Of a stretch of DNA of 41,475 bases, positions 7,796-30,502 are shown in pieces. Every line of letters begins with the position of its first letter. Position 1 is the stretch's first letter. Made by a program: the position numbers and the translations under genes. This DNA comes from Conidiobolus coronatus NRRL 28638. Lineage: Eukaryota > Entomophthoromycota > Entomophthoromycetes > Entomophthorales > Conidiobolaceae. A model generated the notes under the pieces. That model saw only the letters and a list, made by a program, of their open reading frames with translations. It was not told the origin of the DNA and made no database searches. The stretch is taken from contig KQ964526.1 in assembly GCA_001566745.1 (NCBI GenBank), forward strand, positions 34,086 through 75,560. Reading direction: 5' to 3'.

Positions 7796-8127
7796 GATAT
7801 CTTCATATTAATTATCTCTAGTTTAACTTATTAGAAACTGAATTAAAATAAAATTTCAAATCCAGCAAAATCTCTATACATTGATAATTTCTCGATTCTT
7901 TCTTATAAAACCACTCTCAAAATTTATTCTATTAACTTTCAAAAATTTTTAATTTGTGTCAAAAATCCCTAATTGAATATAAATTTCGTTTTAAAATAAA
8001 AAAATTTCTAAAAGCTTTTTTAAAACAATATTAATCATTATTTTTGCAATATTGGTTTAATATATTATACTAATCTATCAATAATTAAATTTAATAAATA
8101 TGAGTGTATATCTATTTCAAACAAGTT

Positions 8128-8388
8128 TTAATTTATTTGATCGGTTATATTTAATTGTAATGGAGGACCTATTGGTAGCTTTTCAAAAGGAACTGGAAAC
8201 AGTTTGTACTCTGGTTGGTCAGCTAAGTTGGAATCTAAATCAGCGTTTTTGGCTACTTTATTCCACCCCAGTATATATTCAATTATTGATTTATAGCTAT
8301 AGTTATTCGCTTTACCAATGCTATCGTTTTCTTTATTTTTAGAAATTGAATTTAATTGGTTTTTATCGTTTTCCATAATATAAGCCAT
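8128..8388 (-). CDS. Hypothetical small protein (86 aa)
   Basis: An 86-codon frame starting ATGGCT in a good initiation context (TACCATGG). It encodes a hydrophilic protein rich in Asn, Lys, Asp and Ser. Its C-terminal half looks protein-like (WNKVAKNADLDSNLADQPEY, then FPVPFEKLPIGPPLQL). No signal peptide, membrane span or known motif is seen. A TATAAAT lies about 20 bp upstream, closer to the ATG than in neighbouring genes. The opposite-strand frame over the same bases is hydrophobic, Tyr/Leu-rich and less credible. It may be a real small gene or one exon of a larger one. I do not recognise it. Confidence 0.4.
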   Translation of the reverse strand: MAYIMENDKNQLNSISKNKENDSIGKANNYSYKSIIEYILGWNKVAKNADLDSNLADQPEYKLFPVPFEKLPIGPPLQLNITDQIN

Positions 8389-8399
8389 GGTATTTTTTC

Positions 8400-9300
8400 T
8401 ACAGATTTATATCACTTAAGCTTTTTATTTTTTAAGATTTGGAAGAATAAGATATAAATATAAGATTTTGAGACTATAGTGGCATAAAAATTATAATTAA
8501 TAATAGCTTAATATGATCATCGTTGCTTGATAGAGCTAGTAAAAGTATATGACTACAATAAACTTAATAAAACTTGAATAACTTAGCCACTGAATTTCAT
8601 GAATTATAATATACTAGATTTGGGTTGATTGATAGTATATCTAGTTAATTTATATGCAAAGAAAACTGTAATATTTGATATTATATAATATAAATTACAA
8701 GTTGCTGAGAATGGTTATAATGTAGTCGTTAGCTATTTCAAGAGATAATACTAACATTCTTTATATAGGTAAATGTATGTAACTAGTATAATGTGCTAAA
8801 ATGTGTTAAATATTCTAGTCTTATTTATACATTAGTTCATTTTATTAAATATGGAGAATAGATTCAAATTAGAAAAATATGGATGTGTATCTGATATCTC
8901 ATATAAAATATATACCAAAATAGCTTTATAAGTCAAATTATATATATACCAAGTTGGAATAACACAAAAGTTTCAATATATGCCATTTAGTATTTAAACC
9001 ATAATATTGATAATATATCAATTAATAAAATTAGCAAAATTGCTATATTAATTAATTTTTAAGATAATGTGGAAATGGTTTAATAGAATTTGCAAGTTCT
9101 TATATTTTCAACGTTTAATAACTTGAAATGTGTATAGATAACTATTACAATAGGTGTTAGCTAGATATAGTACATGGGTTATGTTAATAATAGCTAGGAG
9201 TAATAATTATATTTATTACATATATTGAATTTAGACTTAGTTTGGAATTAAAACCAACTGTGTTAAGATATTGAATTAGCCATGATTTTTAGCGAAAATT
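8400..9300. other. Intergenic AT-rich region
   Basis: No gene, structured RNA or notable repeat recognised between the 86-aa frame and the promoter of the large secreted gene. Confidence 0.45.
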
Positions 9301-9361: not shown

Positions 9362-11791
9362 ATGAAGTTTAATGCTTCAACTATTTTTTTGCTGCTCTCA
9401 GCTATACAATGCAGCGAGCCAGTAAGCCCTGGAGGGCTTTTTGGTACTTTTGCAAATGGTTTTAAATCTGCAGCATCTGGTATGGCAAGTATTGCAGATT
9501 ATGCTACTGGTAGGAATCAAAATCCACCTAATACTGGGTCACAGACTCAACTGCAACCAGAACCAGAAACACAACCACAGTCTCAACCGCAAAGTCCTCC
9601 AGAATGCCCGCCAGGAACTAGACTTTCTCCTGGCCCTGCAGGAGGACCACCGAATATATGTGCATGTATCCCACCATGTAATAATTACGGAATGGTAGAG
9701 GTGTCAGGATTCGGTAATGGGCCTCAAAGAATCTGTGTATTTTGTCCACCATGTCCACAAGGTACTGTAGAAGTTAATGGAAGGTACGGAGGGCCACCAA
9801 AAATATGTGTAGAAGTTCCTAAAGATAAATGCCCTCCTGGAACACGCCCTAACCCGAAGGGAAATCCACCATGCATTCCAATCATTTCACCAGGGCAATG
9901 CCCTTCAGGAATGAATCCACTGCCAAATCCAATAGGCGGTCCTCCAACCATTTGTGTTGCAGGTCCTCCATGTCCTAATGGAATGATTACAGTTCCGGGT
10001 CTACCTGGAGGACCGTCACCAATGTGTGCATTTTTCCCTCCCTGTCCTAGCATTTCAGTAGAAATAGCAGGCGCTCAAGGAGGTCCCCCAAAGATTTGTG
10101 TCGTAGTTCCTAAACCTGGATGTCCACCAGGACAAGTACCTAATCCTAAAGGAAATCCACCATGTATTCCTGATGGTCCAAGTTGTCCACCAGGGCAAGT
10201 ACCTAATCCCAGAGGGAATCCACCATGTATTCCCGATGGTCCAAATTGTCCACCAGGACAAGTGCCTAATCCCAGAGGAAATCCTCCATGTATTCCCGAT
10301 GGTCCAAGTTGTCCACCAGGACAAGTACCTAATCCTAAAGGAAATCCTCCATGTATTCCTGATAGTCCAAGCTGTCCGCCAGGTATGATACCAAATCCCA
10401 GAGGAAACCCACCATGTATTCCCAATGGTCCAAATTGTCCATCAGGACAAGTACCCAATCCCAGAGGAAATCCTCCATGTATTCCCGATGGTCCAAGTTG
10501 TCCACCAGGACAGGTGCCTAATCCTAAAGGGAATCCACCATGTATTCCTGATGGACCAAAATGTCCACCAGGGCAAGTACCTAATCCTAAGGGAAATCCT
10601 CCATGCATTGAGGTTCCAAATTGTCCGCCAGGTCAGATACCTAATCCTAGAGAACTTAATCCTCCTTGTATAACACCTCCGGAATGTCCTAATAGCATGT
10701 TTGCGATACCAGGACCGCCAGGAGCGCCTCCGTTTATGTGCGTTGGACCCCCTCCTTGTATGAAGGGGATGATTAAAGTTGGGGAAGTCCCAGATGTCTT
10801 CCCTGGGTTCTGTGCTTTCGCACCACCATGTCTACCAGGAACCACAGCAGCTCCAGGGCCTCCAGGAGGACCTTCAGAGATATGTGTGATTATACCACCT
10901 TTTAAATGTCCACCAGGGATGGCCAAGAATCCATCATTATATCCACCATGCAAAGAGCCACAAAAACCACAAACTTGTCCTAAAGGAATGATTTCTATCG
11001 ATGGAATTGTAAGAGATAGATCGAATTTCTGTGTCTATCCCCCACCTTGTCCAAAAGGCACATCTGAGTTTATAGGATTTCCAGGAGGTCCACCAACGGT
11101 GTGTATGATTAAAGCTCCTTGCCCAGTAGGAATGGAACTAGCTCCAGCTGATCTAGAAGGACCTGTAAACGTATGTATTACTGTGCCTCCTTTAGTATGT
11201 CCCAAAGGCTATACCCCAAATCCTGAATTAGTTCCACCATGTATTGAGGAAGCACCACCAGTTACTTGCCCATTAGGAATGGTTGCAATTCCAAGTCCCA
11301 TTGACGGAAATTCAAGGATTTGCGTCAACCCCCCACCTTGCCCACAAGGAACCATCCAAGCACCAGGAACGCCAGGAGGTCCGCCTTTTATTTGTGTATA
11401 TGCTCCTCCTTGCCCTCCTGGAACCACTGAGATACGTGGAATGCCAGGTGGCCCACAAAAGATATGTGTAGTATCTCCTCCTCTTAAATGCCCAAGCGGA
11501 TATCTCCCTAATCCAAAGGCAAACCCACCTTGTGAACTTGAACCAGATCACGGAGAATGTCCTTACGGAATGGTTGAGCTTAAAGGAGATGTAGGACAGC
11601 CGGCTAGAATGTGTGTACTTCCGCTCCCTTGCACAGGTGGATTTATTCAAATTAGGGGTATTAAAGAGAAAGGTCAGCCTAATCATTTCTGTGCTTGTCA
11701 GCCAGCGTGTCCTCCAGGAGAGGTAGAAGTAAAGGGAGGAAAGGGACAACCGCCTAAATTCTGTATCGTTGAGCCCGGAGAATATTACTGA
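9362..11791 (+). CDS. Secreted Cys/Pro/Gly-rich modular repeat protein (809 aa)
   Basis: Single exon. It starts with a signal peptide (MKFNASTIFLLLSAIQC, cleavage near residue 17-20), then a Gly/Ala segment and a Gln/Pro linker (about 50-80). From there to the C-terminus it is built of two Cys modules. Type A is about 22 aa, CPxGxxxxxGxxGGPPxICV. Type B is 21 aa, CPPGQVPNPKGNPPCIPDGP, repeated eight times in tandem in the middle. Type A units fill both flanks. Cysteines occur at regular intervals in pairs, suggesting an extensively disulfide-bonded extracellular fibre or coat. No enzyme domain, GPI-like tail or membrane span is visible. An adhesin or matrix/holdfast role is inference only. 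The DNA is markedly GC-richer than its flanks. I do not recognise the family. Confidence 0.85.
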   Translation: MKFNASTIFLLLSAIQCSEPVSPGGLFGTFANGFKSAASGMASIADYATGRNQNPPNTGSQTQLQPEPETQPQSQPQSPPECPPGTRLSPGPAGGPPNICACIPPCNNYGMVEVSGFGNGPQRICVFCPPCPQGTVEVNGRYGGPPKICVEVPKDKCPPGTRPNPKGNPPCIPIISPGQCPSGMNPLPNPIGGPPTICVAGPPCPNGMITVPGLPGGPSPMCAFFPPCPSISVEIAGAQGGPPKICVVVPKPGCPPGQVPNPKGNPPCIPDGPSCPPGQVPNPRGNPPCIPDGPNCPPGQVPNPRGNPPCIPDGPSCPPGQVPNPKGNPPCIPDSPSCPPGMIPNPRGNPPCIPNGPNCPSGQVPNPRGNPPCIPDGPSCPPGQVPNPKGNPPCIPDGPKCPPGQVPNPKGNPPCIEVPNCPPGQIPNPRELNPPCITPPECPNSMFAIPGPPGAPPFMCVGPPPCMKGMIKVGEVPDVFPGFCAFAPPCLPGTTAAPGPPGGPSEICVIIPPFKCPPGMAKNPSLYPPCKEPQKPQTCPKGMISIDGIVRDRSNFCVYPPPCPKGTSEFIGFPGGPPTVCMIKAPCPVGMELAPADLEGPVNVCITVPPLVCPKGYTPNPELVPPCIEEAPPVTCPLGMVAIPSPIDGNSRICVNPPPCPQGTIQAPGTPGGPPFICVYAPPCPPGTTEIRGMPGGPQKICVVSPPLKCPSGYLPNPKANPPCELEPDHGECPYGMVELKGDVGQPARMCVLPLPCTGGFIQIRGIKEKGQPNHFCACQPACPPGEVEVKGGKGQPPKFCIVEPGEYY
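10120..10623 (+). repeat. 63-bp coding minisatellite (8 units)
   Basis: Tandem 63-bp units, each encoding 21 aa from one CPPG to the next. Substitutions are mostly synonymous, Lys/Arg (PNPKG versus PNPRG) or Ser/Asn at the last position. One unit has CPPGMIPN and one CPSGQ. Array homogeneity indicates recent unequal exchange or conversion. Confidence 0.85.
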
Positions 11792-12814
11792 TAGTAATTT
11801 TTGAATCTCTTTAAGACTAACATTAGACTGATGCAAACTATATTTTTTATGAAATAATGCAATAAAAATATAAGTAATAAATTAAGAATGTGAATATTCT
11901 GTTATATTATATTGGTCATATCTAGTAATTTTATAATTAAGAACACACATATTTTACTATCAAATTTTTGAAAGATCTTCAATCAATAGAATGAAATTAA
12001 TAAGCTATCAAAGCACTATAAAAAGTAGCTAGTCTAGCTCATAAAAATATTAAAAATTTTATAGAAATTTAATCCAATAAAGTTGTAGCAAACTTTTTAA
12101 ATAGTATAGAATGGTAATTTTTTCAAGTATCTAACTCTTAAGAGTGAAGCTGTACTAGTGAGTAAAAGTTTGAGATAATCAGTTAATATCAGTGAAATGT
12201 AATAACTTTCATTCCATTCAGTGGACAAATATTCATTCGACAAAATAATTTAATGCCCCATAATAACAATATTTTCTCTAAAATAACCTTAAAATCTTGA
12301 GTCATTTAGTTCAAAACCTAAATTCGCTTTGGTTAAAAAGAATAACATAATATGAAGTAGATTCCATAAACATACTTAATATCGTAATTAAATAGATTTA
12401 TATTTTATTCAAAAATTTGTAGGTAATCATCAAAACTGGCTATAATTTATAATACTTTAAAAATACAGATCGTTTTTAACTAAAAAAGAGCGCCAGCTAG
12501 AATAATAAAGCTTCAGTACTTGGCAGATATTATCAAAATTTATAATTAACAGTCAAATATAGTCAATTTTTTTAGCTATATTAATCAAAAATTAATCAAA
12601 AATGAACACAGCTTAATCACTAATTATAAAAAAGATCAACAGCTTTGCCAACTATAAAATTCTTCAATTACAAAAAATAAATGCCACATAATTATAATGA
12701 TAATTATATATTTAAATTGACTAAATTTAGATATTTTTAATATTAAAATTAATAACAAATAAATATTGAGCAGGGTTTTTATCTGATACTTCTAGAATAT
12801 GCTAATTTATTCAG
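11792..12814. other. Intergenic AT-rich region
   Basis: Holds the 3' flank of the repeat-protein gene and the 5' flank of the acidic secreted gene. No other gene is supported. Confidence 0.45.
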
Positions 12815-12823
12815 TATAAAAAG
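12815..12823 (+). promoter_or_regulatory. TATA box of the acidic secreted protein gene
   Basis: TATAAAAAG, 62 bp upstream of the ATG at 12877. Confidence 0.55.
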
Positions 12824-12876
12824 CAATTGAATAGAGTTAATATAGTATCAATCTTGTTTTTATATTGTTAATAAAT

Positions 12877-13383
12877 ATGAAGTTGATTACTTGCTCTATT
12901 CCTTTATTTATCATTAGTGTTAGCTCTGCACCACCAAATTACTCTGGATTATTTGGTGATGACTTTACAAAGTTATTTGATGGTTTTAACTTTGAAAAAG
13001 AATTTAATTCACTTTTTAAAGATCCTTTTGATGAATTTAGTAACTCCTTCCACGGAGGTCTATCAAATATAGATGAAATTTTCAAAAAGGCCCAAGACTC
13101 CTTTCAAGATAGTTTTAATCAATTCCAGAAACAAATCGACAATATTAGTAAATTAGCTAAAGATTCGCCAAATACTGATTCAGTTAGCGAATCCATTTCA
13201 AAGGAGTTCACTACGGACCCTAAAACTGGAAAACCTGAGATTAAAACTCATAAGGAGGTGCATGAAAATGGTCCGCACACTCATAACGCCCCTGTTAATG
13301 AAAAAGAAGATACTATAACTGATGCTAATACTGGCGAGCTTATTAGCTCTGAAATGGATAATACTACACCTGAAAGTAGCTGA
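12877..13383 (+). CDS. Small secreted acidic protein (168 aa)
   Basis: I place the start at the ATG at 12877 (MKLITCSIPLFIISVSSA), because the upstream in-frame TTG at 12865 only extends the signal peptide. Cleavage is predicted after SSA, before PPNYSG. The mature part begins with a Phe/Asp-rich region (FGDDFTKLFDGFNF, FKDPFDEFSNSF). A Gln/Phe amphipathic stretch follows (KKAQDSFQDSFNQFQKQ), then a Thr/Glu/Asp/Asn-rich hydrophilic tail. After the signal peptide it has no cysteines, membrane span or known domain. It could be a secreted structural or effector-like protein; function unknown. A single exon and a TATA box match its neighbours. Confidence 0.75.
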   Translation: MKLITCSIPLFIISVSSAPPNYSGLFGDDFTKLFDGFNFEKEFNSLFKDPFDEFSNSFHGGLSNIDEIFKKAQDSFQDSFNQFQKQIDNISKLAKDSPNTDSVSESISKEFTTDPKTGKPEIKTHKEVHENGPHTHNAPVNEKEDTITDANTGELISSEMDNTTPESS

Positions 13384-13956: not shown

Positions 13957-14356
13957 NNNNNNNNNNNNNNNNNNNNNNNNNNNNNNNNNNNNNNNNNNNN
14001 NNNNNNNNNNNNNNNNNNNNNNNNNNNNNNNNNNNNNNNNNNNNNNNNNNNNNNNNNNNNNNNNNNNNNNNNNNNNNNNNNNNNNNNNNNNNNNNNNNNN
14101 NNNNNNNNNNNNNNNNNNNNNNNNNNNNNNNNNNNNNNNNNNNNNNNNNNNNNNNNNNNNNNNNNNNNNNNNNNNNNNNNNNNNNNNNNNNNNNNNNNNN
14201 NNNNNNNNNNNNNNNNNNNNNNNNNNNNNNNNNNNNNNNNNNNNNNNNNNNNNNNNNNNNNNNNNNNNNNNNNNNNNNNNNNNNNNNNNNNNNNNNNNNN
14301 NNNNNNNNNNNNNNNNNNNNNNNNNNNNNNNNNNNNNNNNNNNNNNNNNNNNNNNN
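13957..14356. other. Assembly gap (400 N)
   Basis: Exactly 400 undetermined bases. The flanks do not resemble each other, unlike those of the second gap. Reading frames spanning it are meaningless. Confidence 0.99.
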
Positions 14357-16082: not shown

Positions 16083-16697
16083 ATGGTCAGTTTTACCTCA
16101 GTTTCTAGCATTGCTGTCGCTCTTTTAACTGCTTCTTCAGCTGTCAATGCTCAATATGCCCCTCAAATGCAACAATTCCCTCAAATGCAAATGCAATTCC
16201 AGCAACCTTCTAACTTTGATCAGTATGGACTCCCTTCTGCTTATGCTGGTCAAACTCAACAATATCCTACTCCTCAACAACAGCAACAACCTCAGCAACA
16301 ACAACAACAACAACAGCAACCCGCTGTCCCTCAAAGTGAAGCCCTTAATGAATTATCTCAAACTTTCTACAATTGGGCCAAAGCCACTAACATTGTAAAC
16401 AAAAATTATCAACAAGTAGCCACAGATGCAATGAACGATTTCAAGAATGCTCAAGGATCAGTTAAAGATAAATTGGCTGTAGTCAACAAAAAGTACCAAC
16501 TTCAAGAGCTTGCAGGAGCATTGGCCCCAGTAGCTACCAAGTTAGCTAAAGAATATCAAACTAATCCCGCAGTTAAACAAGCAGCAGCTAATTACTTGCC
16601 CAAAATTCAAGAAATGATCTCTTCCGTAACTGGCGGTAGTGGAGGTTTAGGAGCTATTACTTCTTTATTAGGTCCTTTGAAGAGTCTTTTAGGATAA
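16083..16697 (+). CDS. Secreted Gln-rich protein, paralogue 1 (204 aa)
   Basis: Single exon. Signal peptide MVSFTSVSSIAVALLTASSA with a cleavage site near VNA-QY. A Gln/Met/Pro region follows (QMQQFPQMQMQFQQPSN), then a polyglutamine tract near residues 65-80. The C-terminal ~115 residues are mostly helical in character: FYNWAKATNIVNKNYQ, DKLAVVNKKYQLQELAGALA, then KLAKEYQTNPAVKQAAANYL. The tail is Gly/Leu/Ser-rich. There are no cysteines and no enzyme motif. It is one of a tandem pair with the gene at 17682, which shares its promoter elements and the first 176 coding bases exactly. A cell-surface or extracellular role is inferred from the signal peptide; the family is not recognised. Confidence 0.85.
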   Translation: MVSFTSVSSIAVALLTASSAVNAQYAPQMQQFPQMQMQFQQPSNFDQYGLPSAYAGQTQQYPTPQQQQQPQQQQQQQQQPAVPQSEALNELSQTFYNWAKATNIVNKNYQQVATDAMNDFKNAQGSVKDKLAVVNKKYQLQELAGALAPVATKLAKEYQTNPAVKQAAANYLPKIQEMISSVTGGSGGLGAITSLLGPLKSLLG

Positions 16698-17681: not shown

Positions 17682-18311
17682 ATGGTCAGTTTTACCTCAG
17701 TTTCTAGCATTGCTGTCGCTCTTTTAACTGCTTCTTCAGCTGTCAATGCTCAATATGCCCCTCAAATGCAACAATTCCCTCAAATGCAAATGCAATTCCA
17801 GCAACCTTCTAACTTTGATCAGTATGGACTCCCTTCTGCTTATGCTGGTCAAACTCAGCAATATCCTACTCCTCAACAACAACAGACTCAGCAAAAACCC
17901 CAGCAACAGCCTGAACAGTCTCAACAGCAGCAATCTGCTGTTCCTCCAAGTGAAGCTCTTAATGATCTATCTCAAACCTTCTACAATTGGGCCAAGGCCA
18001 CTGATATTGTAAACAAAAATTATCAAACAGTAGCCACAGATGCAATGAACGATTTTAAGAATGCTCAAGGGTCTATTAAGGATAAATTATCTGCAATCAA
18101 CAAAAAGTACCAACTTCAAGAGCTTGCAGGAGCATTGGCCCCAGTAGCTACCAAGTTAGCTAGTGAATATCAAACTAATCCCGCAGTTCAACAAGCAGCA
18201 GCAGACTACTTACCTAAAATCAAAGAAATGGCCTCCTCTGCTATTGCCGGTAGTGGAGGTGCAGGAGGTATTGCCAACTTATTAGGCCCTTTGAAAGATA
18301 TTTTAGGATAA
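17682..18311 (+). CDS. Secreted Gln-rich protein, paralogue 2 (209 aa)
   Basis: Same architecture as the gene at 16083: identical signal peptide and Gln/Met/Pro region, a Gln tract interrupted by Lys, Pro, Glu and Ser, then the helical C-terminal region (FYNWAKATDIVNKNYQ, DKLSAINKKYQLQELAGALA) and a Gly/Ala-rich tail (GSGGAGGIANLLG). The first 176 coding bases are identical between the copies. The Gln tract and tail have diverged, while a second identical block codes for LQELAGALAPVATKLA. Length differs by five residues, mainly in the Gln tract. Recent tandem duplication or gene conversion explains the pattern. Expression is probably co-ordinated with paralogue 1 through the shared promoter elements. 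Confidence 0.85.
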   Translation: MVSFTSVSSIAVALLTASSAVNAQYAPQMQQFPQMQMQFQQPSNFDQYGLPSAYAGQTQQYPTPQQQQTQQKPQQQPEQSQQQQSAVPPSEALNDLSQTFYNWAKATDIVNKNYQTVATDAMNDFKNAQGSIKDKLSAINKKYQLQELAGALAPVATKLASEYQTNPAVQQAAADYLPKIKEMASSAIAGSGGAGGIANLLGPLKDILG

Positions 18312-18476: not shown

Positions 18477-20501
18477 ATGAATGAAATATTTGATTCAAGA
18501 TTAGAAAGCGAAGAATTCAGCGATATTAGCACTGATAGTAGCATATTTAAAGATACTTCCTCTGATATTGGTATTGACAGTAGCAAAGACAATGGCACAG
18601 ATTCTTACAATGATCATGCATCTTTATTAAGGTAGATAACGTTTATGCTCTCGTATATAATAATTAAATAAACTAATATAGCTCAAGCTATAATTTTATG
18701 GAAAATGACTATAGCACGGGGTAATTTATATCAGTATTATTATACATATTTTAACTTTTTAATAAATATGAATTGAATATTTAAAGTGCTGCTAATAGTA
18801 ATAATACCGATAACGGCTATTTAAATCAAGATTCTAATAAAAAAGCTAAAACTGACAACTATACAATTAATAATATTATTGAGGACAATAAGCCTATGAA
18901 GTATATTATGATATATTTACTATATATAATACTAACTTTGTTTACAAGAGATATCGAATTCCTAATAATTCACCTAATTAATCAGTTAAACTTGGGAAAA
19001 TTACCTTCAATAAAGTTTAATAGTAAACTTTATTATATTATCGTAATTATTATTACTAACCTTTGTTAGGGATTAATTTAAATTTTAATTCAATAAGTTC
19101 TAGTAGAAAATTTGGTAAACTAGCAATAAGAAGAATCAGCTTGGTTAATAACTAACAGTATAGCTATAATATTAAGATTGTTGAGTATGAGTTACGAGTT
19201 AATGTTAAATGGAATAGTAGCAACTAAGAGGCAAGTTAAACTCATGGCTTTTTATTAATTAATTTTAGATTATTAAATTTTAGGGATTTATACTATCAAG
19301 ATGTTAATTTTTTCAGTAATCAATTGACAGTAGACAGAGTAATTCATCAGTGTAACTATCGCATTGCACTAATAGGTTTAGGGAATTGACCAAATTTGCA
19401 AGTTGTTAAACTATCAGAGTTATGAGCTAAACATTGTAACTAATATTGTTTATTGATCTTATTTTATTATTGATTACTACTAGGTAGCTTCGCCTAAAGG
19501 ATTAGTAGCAGGCCATATATCCATAATAACAAGAGATAAATCTATTATTAAGCCTACTTACATTAATCAAGTAGAAATCAATATGATATTATCTATATAT
19601 ACTTATAAGTAAATAGATTATGTTAATTCCAGATATTAGTGTAATACGAAGTAATATAATAATTGAGTTTGGTTTGATTGAAATTAAAATGAATAGAATT
19701 AGAAACTGGTGCAAATAGAGTGATTATAGTTGAGAAAGAGGTAATTAATCTGGTTAATAATATACACAAGACTTAATTATTATAGGCTACTTTTAAATAT
19801 TTAATATCAAAAAATGTATTACACATATATTACCCAATAATACTAGTAACAGTAATATAATTGTAAATTACTTATCGAGTATCAATTGATTGGATATAAT
19901 ATAGGGAAAAGGATATCCAGTATTAAGAATAGCATGTAAATTATATTGATCTAATGAAAATATTTAGGACTTAGCAACTAGAAGTTTTTTAAATAAGATT
20001 TCAAATTTAAATAGCTTAAAATTAGAATTTTTAGTTGATTGGGATCCCTATGGTAAAGGTTAATAATCTATAATAATATTATACTAAAGAAATAGTAGGA
20101 ATTGAAATATACCTGTGCTACAAATACGGCGCAAGAGTAATTTAACTACCAATCAAGATCTCATATTCATCTAAGTTGCATTTTAGAATAGAAAACTATT
20201 AAATACGGACTTAAAGTGCACTTATGGAGTTTATAAAGGATTAAAATATACTCAATTAGCCAAAAAACCAGCCAACTTTAATCAATTAATAAGTTTGAGC
20301 GAGAGAGATAAGCTAAAAATTCAAAGTTTACTCTCTAGAGCTGAGGTAAACGATATTGAAGAATTCAGTTTAAAGTAAAAATAATAATATATATATAATT
20401 TATTAATGGTTTATAGAGTTGAATTGAGTAAACAATTATTTCTTGGATATAAGGCCGAGTTAGAAATTTTAAATTATTTTAATATTTCCGAGTTAATATA
20501 A
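18477..20501 (+). CDS. SPO11: Spo11 meiotic DNA double-strand-break transesterase (17 exons)
   Basis: Topoisomerase VI A-like protein that makes meiotic double-strand breaks through a tyrosyl-DNA intermediate. Exons: 18477-18631, 18682-18720, 18787-18900, 18949-19022, 19070-19114, 19164-19230, 19284-19338, 19382-19435, 19484-19570, 19617-19650, 19697-19740, 19786-19851, 19905-19919, 19968-20052, 20099-20136, 20187-20374, 20417-20501. Every junction phase fits, giving 414 aa (yeast 398, human 396). Landmarks: VATKRDLYYQD with the catalytic Tyr in the Tyr168-Tyr169 pair, VDRGIDQI, NIVASPKGLVAG, the metal-binding VEKE (253-256), VTGKGYPDLATR and the Toprim DWDPYGIEIYLCYKYGAR (DxD at 307/309), then SERDRLKIQSLLSR and LGYKAELEIL. 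Residues 1-100 are acidic and disordered. Intron 6 (19231-19283) is GC-AG; exon 13 is only 15 nt. No catalytic residue is lost, so the gene looks functional. Confidence 0.9.
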
Positions 20502-30281: not shown

Positions 30282-30502
30282 NNNNNNNNNNNNNNNNNNN
30301 NNNNNNNNNNNNNNNNNNNNNNNNNNNNNNNNNNNNNNNNNNNNNNNNNNNNNNNNNNNNNNNNNNNNNNNNNNNNNNNNNNNNNNNNNNNNNNNNNNNN
30401 NNNNNNNNNNNNNNNNNNNNNNNNNNNNNNNNNNNNNNNNNNNNNNNNNNNNNNNNNNNNNNNNNNNNNNNNNNNNNNNNNNNNNNNNNNNNNNNNNNNN
30501 NN
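30282..30502. other. Assembly gap (221 N)
   Basis: 221 undetermined bases bracketed by two copies of the same sequence. The true gap may be zero or negative (unmerged overlapping contigs or haplotypes). Confidence 0.98.

What the first reader, a model, noticed from the sequence alone, without database searches (positions are those of the whole stretch)
18477..20501. Complete SPO11 gene hidden in a region without long ORFs
Between the secreted block and COG4 the sequence looks non-coding, yet 17 short exons join in phase into a full Spo11. They include the catalytic Tyr pair, VEKE, GKGYPDLATR and the DxD of the Toprim fold. Sixteen introns in a ~1.25-kb CDS is much denser than neighbouring genes (1-12 introns). 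Standard gene callers are likely to miss or mangle it. Its presence implies meiotic potential in this organism.
Basis: partly seen in the sequence, partly recalled or inferred. Interest (0 to 1): 0.8.

Follow-up and report, generated by a model that had tools for sequence, protein, structure and literature searches.

The report
Intron-shattered SPO11 gene, mis-annotated publicly
This stretch of a soil and insect fungus genome (Conidiobolus coronatus) carries an apparently intact gene for Spo11, the enzyme that starts meiotic recombination, cut by sixteen tiny introns; the public gene model appears wrong in three places, and the gene hints that a fungus described without a sexual spore may still be able to do meiosis.

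Summary
Joining 17 exons (18477-20501, + strand) gives one open frame of 414 aa with TP6A_N and Spo11-Toprim domains; yeast SPO11 is its best PDB relative. A spliced alignment to 12 SPO11s from other organisms returns 12 introns, all equal to the model's; its score is 194 against at most 22.4 in 200 shuffles.

The DNA is Conidiobolus coronatus, probably NRRL 28638. The public protein (356 aa, "DNA topoisomerase IV, alpha subunit") is reproduced exactly from this DNA but avoids a GC-AG intron, skips two exons and stops inside intron 16; both Pfam scores drop. The forecast that gene callers would mangle the gene is borne out.

"Meiotic potential" is only partly supported: MND1 is also present, but DMC1, MSH4/5, HOP1, REC8 and HOP2 were not seen in the held 17.5 Mb, under half the genome. 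SPO11 and MND1 carry over 11 introns per kb against a published 1.58 for the species. The protein is ordinary; the annotation error and intron contrast are the useful parts.

The parts
18477..18631 (+). SPO11 exon 1 (start codon 18477-18479; Ser/Asp/Asn-rich N-terminal tail)
   Evidence: same exon in public model; not covered by the homology profile
18682..18720 (+). SPO11 exon 2
   Evidence: same in public model; not covered by the profile
18787..18900 (+). SPO11 exon 3
   Evidence: same in public model; not covered by the profile
18949..19022 (+). SPO11 exon 4
   Evidence: same in public model; not covered by the profile
19070..19114 (+). SPO11 exon 5
   Evidence: profile alignment begins at 19084
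19164..19230 (+). SPO11 exon 6, ends in TKR just before the catalytic tyrosines
   Evidence: cut short at 19203 in public model
19231..19283 (+). intron 6, GC-AG type (exon AG|GCAAGT); public model uses 19204-19268 (GT-AG) instead
19284..19338 (+). SPO11 exon 7 with tyrosine pair Y168 (19291-19293) and Y169 (19294-19296; the invariant one)
19382..19435 (+). SPO11 exon 8
19484..19570 (+). SPO11 exon 9 (SPKGLVAG)
19617..19650 (+). SPO11 exon 10
19697..19740 (+). SPO11 exon 11, VEKE; Toprim glutamate E254 at 19732-19734
19786..19851 (+). SPO11 exon 12 (ATFKYLI...VT), skipped in public model
19905..19919 (+). SPO11 exon 13, 15-nt micro-exon GKGYP, skipped in public model
19968..20052 (+). SPO11 exon 14, DLATR and DxD (D307 20037-20039, D309 20043-20045)
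20099..20136 (+). SPO11 exon 15
20187..20374 (+). SPO11 exon 16; public model reads on into intron 16 to a TAA at 20376-20378
20417..20501 (+). SPO11 exon 17 with the nearly invariant K399 (in KAE) and stop codon, missing from public model

Best explanation
An intact SPO11 gene of Conidiobolus coronatus, the only such place seen in the held part of the genome. Shown: a 17-exon gene model whose product has the winged-helix/5Y-CAP domain with the tyrosine pair and the Toprim domain with its acidic residues, scored far above chance. Inferred from the family (recalled knowledge): as a dimer with a Topo VIB-like partner, its tyrosine attacks DNA and stays bound to the 5' ends, making the meiotic double-strand breaks that start recombination. 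Inferred: nearly every short intron has to be removed for an active enzyme. Of 16 introns, 13 hold an in-frame stop when retained alone, introns 7 and 10 would shift the frame, and only intron 3 (48 nt, no stop) could stay in frame. RNA splicing is therefore a point of failure or of control. The deposited shorter protein is most simply an annotation error caused by a GC-AG intron, a 15-nt micro-exon and a missed last exon.
For: Open spliced frame; Pfam Toprim 103.6 bits and TP6A_N 68.3 bits; yeast SPO11 84.5 bits against at most 54.5 for the four Topo VI A sequences listed; 81 homologs with E up to 0.001, one of them the public C. coronatus protein, the next three from Glomeromycotina; catalytic residues invariant in 14 rows; 12 of 12 introns recovered by the profile alignment; shuffle control; the model scores above the public one in both domains (46.7 to 103.6 and 45.9 to 68.3 bits); one TP6A_N match in the held genome; MND1 present.
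Against: No RNA evidence for any junction. Introns 1-4 and the start codon are not tested by homology. The tree did not place the gene well: it joined a long-branched yeast, and its letter make-up is deviant. A Topo VIB-like partner was not searched for; DMC1 was not seen in the held 17.5 Mb, nor were MSH4/MSH5 recognised among the MutS places.
Confidence: 0.93

Rival explanations
1. The public 356-aa model reflects a real transcript: exons 12-13 are skipped in frame and the last exon is dropped, as a vegetative, catalytically dead splice form. SPO11 would then be regulated by splicing.
For: The skip of 81 nt keeps the frame and the public exons reproduce P0001 letter for letter. Plant SPO11-1 and -2 show much intron retention and some exon skipping (PMC8430568 passages; PMC4071758 passages).
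Against: It removes T278, G279, K280, G281 and P283, each at 90% or more in the 14 aligned rows, one of the 14 being the public model that lacks them, and cuts the Toprim score from 103.6 to 46.7 bits. All three deviations are typical failures of gene callers (GC-AG intron, micro-exon, stop in a retained intron). Nothing I saw says the model has transcript support.
Confidence: 0.12
2. A decaying SPO11 in a lineage that has lost meiosis: still readable but no longer used.
For: Zygospores are not in the species description as far as seen (PMC7136305 passages). Entomophthoralean fungi are hypothesised to be almost entirely asexual (PMC11105155 passage). DMC1 and others were not seen in the held part.
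Against: No stop or frameshift in the model, 16 of 16 introns with GT or GC and AG ends, catalytic residues kept; MND1 is also open over 203 aa. No close relative was available for a dN/dS test.
Confidence: 0.08
3. A Topo VI A subunit (TOP6A, plant SPO11-3 type) used in vegetative DNA decatenation, not the meiotic SPO11.
For: Same superfamily; several public names call it or its relatives a DNA topoisomerase.
Against: Scores favour SPO11 over Topo VI A (84.5 against at most 54.5 bits), and many named relatives are SPO11. No Topo VI A row was in the tree, and a Topo VI B gene was not searched for.
Confidence: 0.03

Closest known systems
SPO11-type proteins of Glomeromycotina (Rhizophagus P0002/P0003, Gigaspora P0004)
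   Same: 37-38% identity over 67% of the query, same two domains, same catalytic residues; also from fungi long taken for asexual (title of a cited paper, seen)
S. cerevisiae SPO11 (PDB 8urq/8uru)
   Same: Aligned over residues 140-403, E 8.9e-23
   Different: Distant in sequence; recalled, not checked: the yeast gene has no intron in its coding sequence
Public protein P0001, 'DNA topoisomerase IV, alpha subunit', C. coronatus NRRL 28638
   Same: Same gene; reproduced letter for letter from the window, 11 of its 13 introns equal the model's
   Different: Alternative intron 19204-19268, exons 12-13 skipped, no exon 17; 356 instead of 414 aa
Land-plant SPO11-1 genes
   Different: 16 introns here, all 42-66 nt, one GC-AG; shared positions not tested

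Membership tests
SPO11 (eukaryotic Topo VI A-like meiotic protein) | TP6A_N winged-helix/5Y-CAP domain | tested here: met
   PF04406 68.3 bits, cut-off 26
SPO11 (eukaryotic Topo VI A-like meiotic protein) | Toprim domain with Glu and DxD | tested here: met
   PF21180 103.6 bits, cut-off 24.1; E254, D307, D309 invariant in 14 rows
SPO11 (eukaryotic Topo VI A-like meiotic protein) | Catalytic tyrosine preceded by conserved Arg | tested here: met
   R165 and Y169 invariant in 14 rows
SPO11 (eukaryotic Topo VI A-like meiotic protein) | Closer to SPO11 than to Topo VI A | tested here: met
   PDB scores 84.5 against at most 54.5 bits; many relatives named SPO11; no tree with Topo VI A was built
SPO11 (eukaryotic Topo VI A-like meiotic protein) | Topo VIB-like partner and DSB accessory proteins in the genome | tested here: inconclusive
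   Rec114 family: no match and no control rang; only 17.5 Mb held; VIB-like not searched
SPO11 (eukaryotic Topo VI A-like meiotic protein) | Makes meiotic double-strand breaks | not testable with these tools
   Needs cells and transcripts
Topo VI A (TOP6A / SPO11-3) | Works with a full Topo VI B subunit | not tested
   No Topo VI B search was made in the held genome
Functional meiotic toolkit | MND1 | tested here: met
   C55 about 77.8-78.75 kb; a hand-joined 200-aa product has PF03962 3.7e-23 and PF18517 3.5e-14; genome hits; refined 203-aa splicing
Functional meiotic toolkit | DMC1 | tested here: inconclusive
   4 matches, all in one gene, which is RAD51 (TIGR02239 506 bits, over its cut-off 478; TIGR02238 417, under its cut-off 447.7); less than half the genome held
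Functional meiotic toolkit | HOP2, HOP1 (HORMA), REC8, MSH4/MSH5, MER3 | tested here: inconclusive
   No matches for TBPIP, HORMA and the two Rad21/Rec8 domains; LZ3wCH found only MND1; the MutS places (3 loci) and Sec63 places (1 locus) look like other members. No RAD21 was found either, so absence means little

The most novel reading that the evidence does not exclude
In this intron-poor genome the meiosis-specific genes keep, or exceed, the intron load inferred for the fungal ancestor: SPO11 12.9 and MND1 11.4 introns per kb, against a published 1.58 for the species and 7.6 for the inferred ancestor. If intron loss here runs through copies of vegetative mRNA, genes silent in vegetative nuclei would be spared, and intron density would be a readable fossil of which genes are expressed only in a rare sexual stage. 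This SPO11 could also keep intron positions published as lost in fungi.
Probability: 0.25. Interest if true: 0.6.

Novelty: new member of a known kind. Interest (0 to 1): 0.38.

Why it matters
Whether Entomophthorales have sex is open: a 2024 paper calls them hypothesised to reproduce almost entirely asexually (PMC11105155 passage) and a 2023 review says mating genetics in the phylum is not well understood (PMC10386755 passage). An intact SPO11 with MND1 makes cryptic meiosis in C. coronatus a testable idea. The public model lacks part of the Toprim core, so a survey relying on it would see a broken or oddly named gene. The gene could also test a published statement that two ancient SPO11 intron positions (8 and 12 of Arabidopsis SPO11-1) were most probably lost in fungi (PMC4071758, section 11 read); the fungi named in that paper's Table 1 are two Dikarya species.

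Tried and rejected
A home-made ab initio gene predictor failed at its first run (script error) and over-spliced wildly at its second (discarded). The third version gave sane neighbours but got SPO11 only partly right: at the setting used for the neighbours, 12 of its 18 introns equal the model's, although its splice-site weights had been trained on those same introns. Its neighbour counts are therefore rough.

A tree of 23 SPO11 rows left the Conidiobolus branch unresolved, joined to a long-branched yeast; no claim is built on it.

The DMC1 model hit turned out to be RAD51. MutS places: C54 is MSH2; C13 and C27 look MSH1-like and MSH6-like by my reading only. Two Sec63 domains in tandem at C48 look like a Brr2-type helicase rather than MER3, again by my reading. 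An alignment search for other Zoopagomycota SPO11 gave 77 proteins; of those that bear a name none but the known C. coronatus one is from that phylum, and the unnamed ones cannot be assigned (candidates capped).

Intron positions of other SPO11 genes could not be compared: the contents of Table 1 in PMC4071758 are not held as text, a paper search for positions gave nothing usable in its listing, and I had no DNA of another eukaryote.

Full report
WHAT IS THERE. From the ATG at 18477 to the TAA ending at 20501 they make a 1245-nt frame, 414 aa, without an internal stop. The 16 introns are 42-66 nt long (median 48), 15 with GT-AG ends and one, intron 6 at 19231-19283, with GC-AG ends in the context AG|GCAAGT. 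Of the 16 introns, 13 contain an in-frame stop if retained alone; the other three are introns 3, 7 and 10, of which 7 and 10 are not a multiple of three long.

IS IT MORE THAN CHANCE. I built a profile from 12 SPO11 proteins of other organisms (of the 14 rows of alignment A1, the model and the public Conidiobolus protein were left out) and aligned it to the raw DNA, allowing introns of 38-90 nt with GT or GC and AG ends. Those settings were chosen after the model was known. The best path has 12 introns; 12 of 12 equal the model's. It starts at 19084, so introns 1-4 are not tested this way. The score is 194. Controls with the same settings: 200 dinucleotide shuffles, mean 16.5, maximum 22.4; minus strand 18.1; 58 tiles from the rest of the window (both strands), best 22.2; the same strand with introns forbidden 40.1.

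WHAT IT IS. Pfam TOP6A-Spo11_Toprim 1.5e-29 and TP6A_N 5.2e-19. In the PDB, yeast SPO11 comes first (8.9e-23), followed by four Topo VI A sequences with weaker scores. In 14 aligned rows the invariant columns include R165, Y169, K206, G207, E254, K255, D307, D309 and G312. The held genome gave one TP6A_N match, the window's own; with 17.5 Mb held, a second copy elsewhere is not excluded.

WHOSE GENOME, AND WHAT THE PUBLIC RECORD SAYS. The best of 81 homologs is P0001, 356 aa, named 'DNA topoisomerase IV, alpha subunit [Conidiobolus coronatus NRRL 28638]'. It is identical to the model outside three places. Joining window DNA in a 14-exon pattern gives P0001 letter for letter, so the window is this species and probably this strain; the held contig is 75,560 bases long, the one on record for P0001 105,715. 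In the public pattern an alternative GT-AG intron 19204-19268 replaces the GC-AG intron 6, exons 12 and 13 (the latter 15 nt) are skipped by one 227-nt intron 19741-19967, and translation runs into intron 16 to a TAA at 20376-20378, so exon 17 is lost. 11 of its 13 introns are shared with the model. The model's reading raises the Toprim score from 46.7 to 103.6 bits and TP6A_N from 45.9 to 68.3 bits and restores the nearly invariant TGKGxP and K399. Whether the shorter form is also a real splice form cannot be told without RNA.

INTRON DENSITY. SPO11 has 12.9 introns per kb of CDS. A rough predictor, its splice weights trained on these introns, gives for window neighbours: COG4 6 introns in 780 aa, a GPN-like ATPase 3 in 283, mitochondrial carrier 1 in 300, ferrochelatase 3 in 421, oxysterol-binding protein 1 in 997, a left-hand gene that I read as PHD-type 11 in 636 and a right-hand gene 5 in 436, that is 0.3-5.8 per kb; a secreted-looking gene (353 aa) and a short left-hand ORF (144 aa) had none, and a minus-strand prediction with 16 introns overlapping the right-hand gene was dropped as spurious. 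Pfam finds the domains of five of these on their longest ORFs. Published values: 1.58 introns per kb for C. coronatus and 7.6 for the inferred fungal ancestor (PMC8476143, section 5 read), and 2.85 exons per gene in another strain (PMC12387763, passages). Those values rest on annotations that, as here, may miss introns, and they are averages over genes. MND1, spliced by hand from the held genome, has 7 introns in 203 aa, 11.4 per kb, its first exon being the ATG alone; RAD51 has about 5-6 in 330 aa, and MSH2 has a 688-codon uninterrupted frame. Two meiotic genes against a handful of others is a lead, not a result. Intron-rich SPO11 is not itself new: land-plant SPO11-1 has 14 (PMC4071758, section 11 read).

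MEIOTIC POTENTIAL. Besides SPO11 the held part has MND1 and RAD51. DMC1 was not found. Searches for TBPIP/HOP2, HORMA, the two Rad21/Rec8 domains and Rec114 gave nothing, but the controls for these either did not ring or rang below the cut-off. Even RAD21, which I expect in every eukaryote (recalled), was not seen, and 17.5 Mb were held of a published 39.9 Mb (PMC8588673 passage; PMC12387763 passage). Absence is therefore uninformative. In the passages I saw of the 2020 revision, C. coronatus is described with conidia, microconidia and villose spores, and zygospores are mentioned for the genus and other species (PMC7136305, 12 of 20 places shown). A search for papers holding both 'Conidiobolus' and 'SPO11' gave one, where the two words are unrelated. 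My searches thus found no report of this gene, in a library that lacks most subscription journals. A parallel case I know by title only: conserved meiotic machinery in Glomus, a putatively ancient asexual lineage (reference list entry seen).

HOW IT WORKS. By family knowledge (recalled): SPO11 dimers with a Topo VIB-like partner cleave DNA through the tyrosine and remain bound to the 5' ends, starting meiotic recombination. Here the catalytic parts are shown; partner, expression and activity are inferred. The gene structure means that correct removal of nearly all of the 16 short introns is needed for an active enzyme.

VERDICT. A real, apparently intact SPO11; a new member of a known kind; public annotation most likely wrong in three places; meiotic potential plausible and testable but not shown.

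Noticed in passing
L008:1288-2254 (G000:C55 about 77.8-78.75 kb): MND1 gene with 7 introns in 203 codons; its first exon is only the ATG, so an ordinary gene caller would probably misplace its start.
   Followed up: partly
16083-16697 and 17682-18311: Tandem copies of a secreted-looking, Gln-rich protein (204 and 209 aa) whose first 60-odd residues are the same; no Pfam match.
   Followed up: no
9362-11791: 809-aa secreted-looking protein rich in CPPGxxPNPxGNPPC-like repeats; its kilobase at 10001-11000 has 48% GC while 8001-9000 and 12001-13000 have 23%; no Pfam match.
   Followed up: no
13957-14356 and 30282-30502: Runs of N, presumably assembly gaps, of 400 and 221 bases.
   Followed up: no
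19231-19283: GC-AG intron directly before the catalytic exon (TKR|DLYY); likely reason for one of the annotation errors.
   Followed up: yes
18477-18900: The first about 100 residues are Ser/Asp/Asn-rich and not conserved in the other SPO11 proteins aligned; role unknown to me.
   Followed up: no
G000:C4:391382-392522: The only RAD51/DMC1-type gene found in the held part is RAD51.
   Followed up: yes
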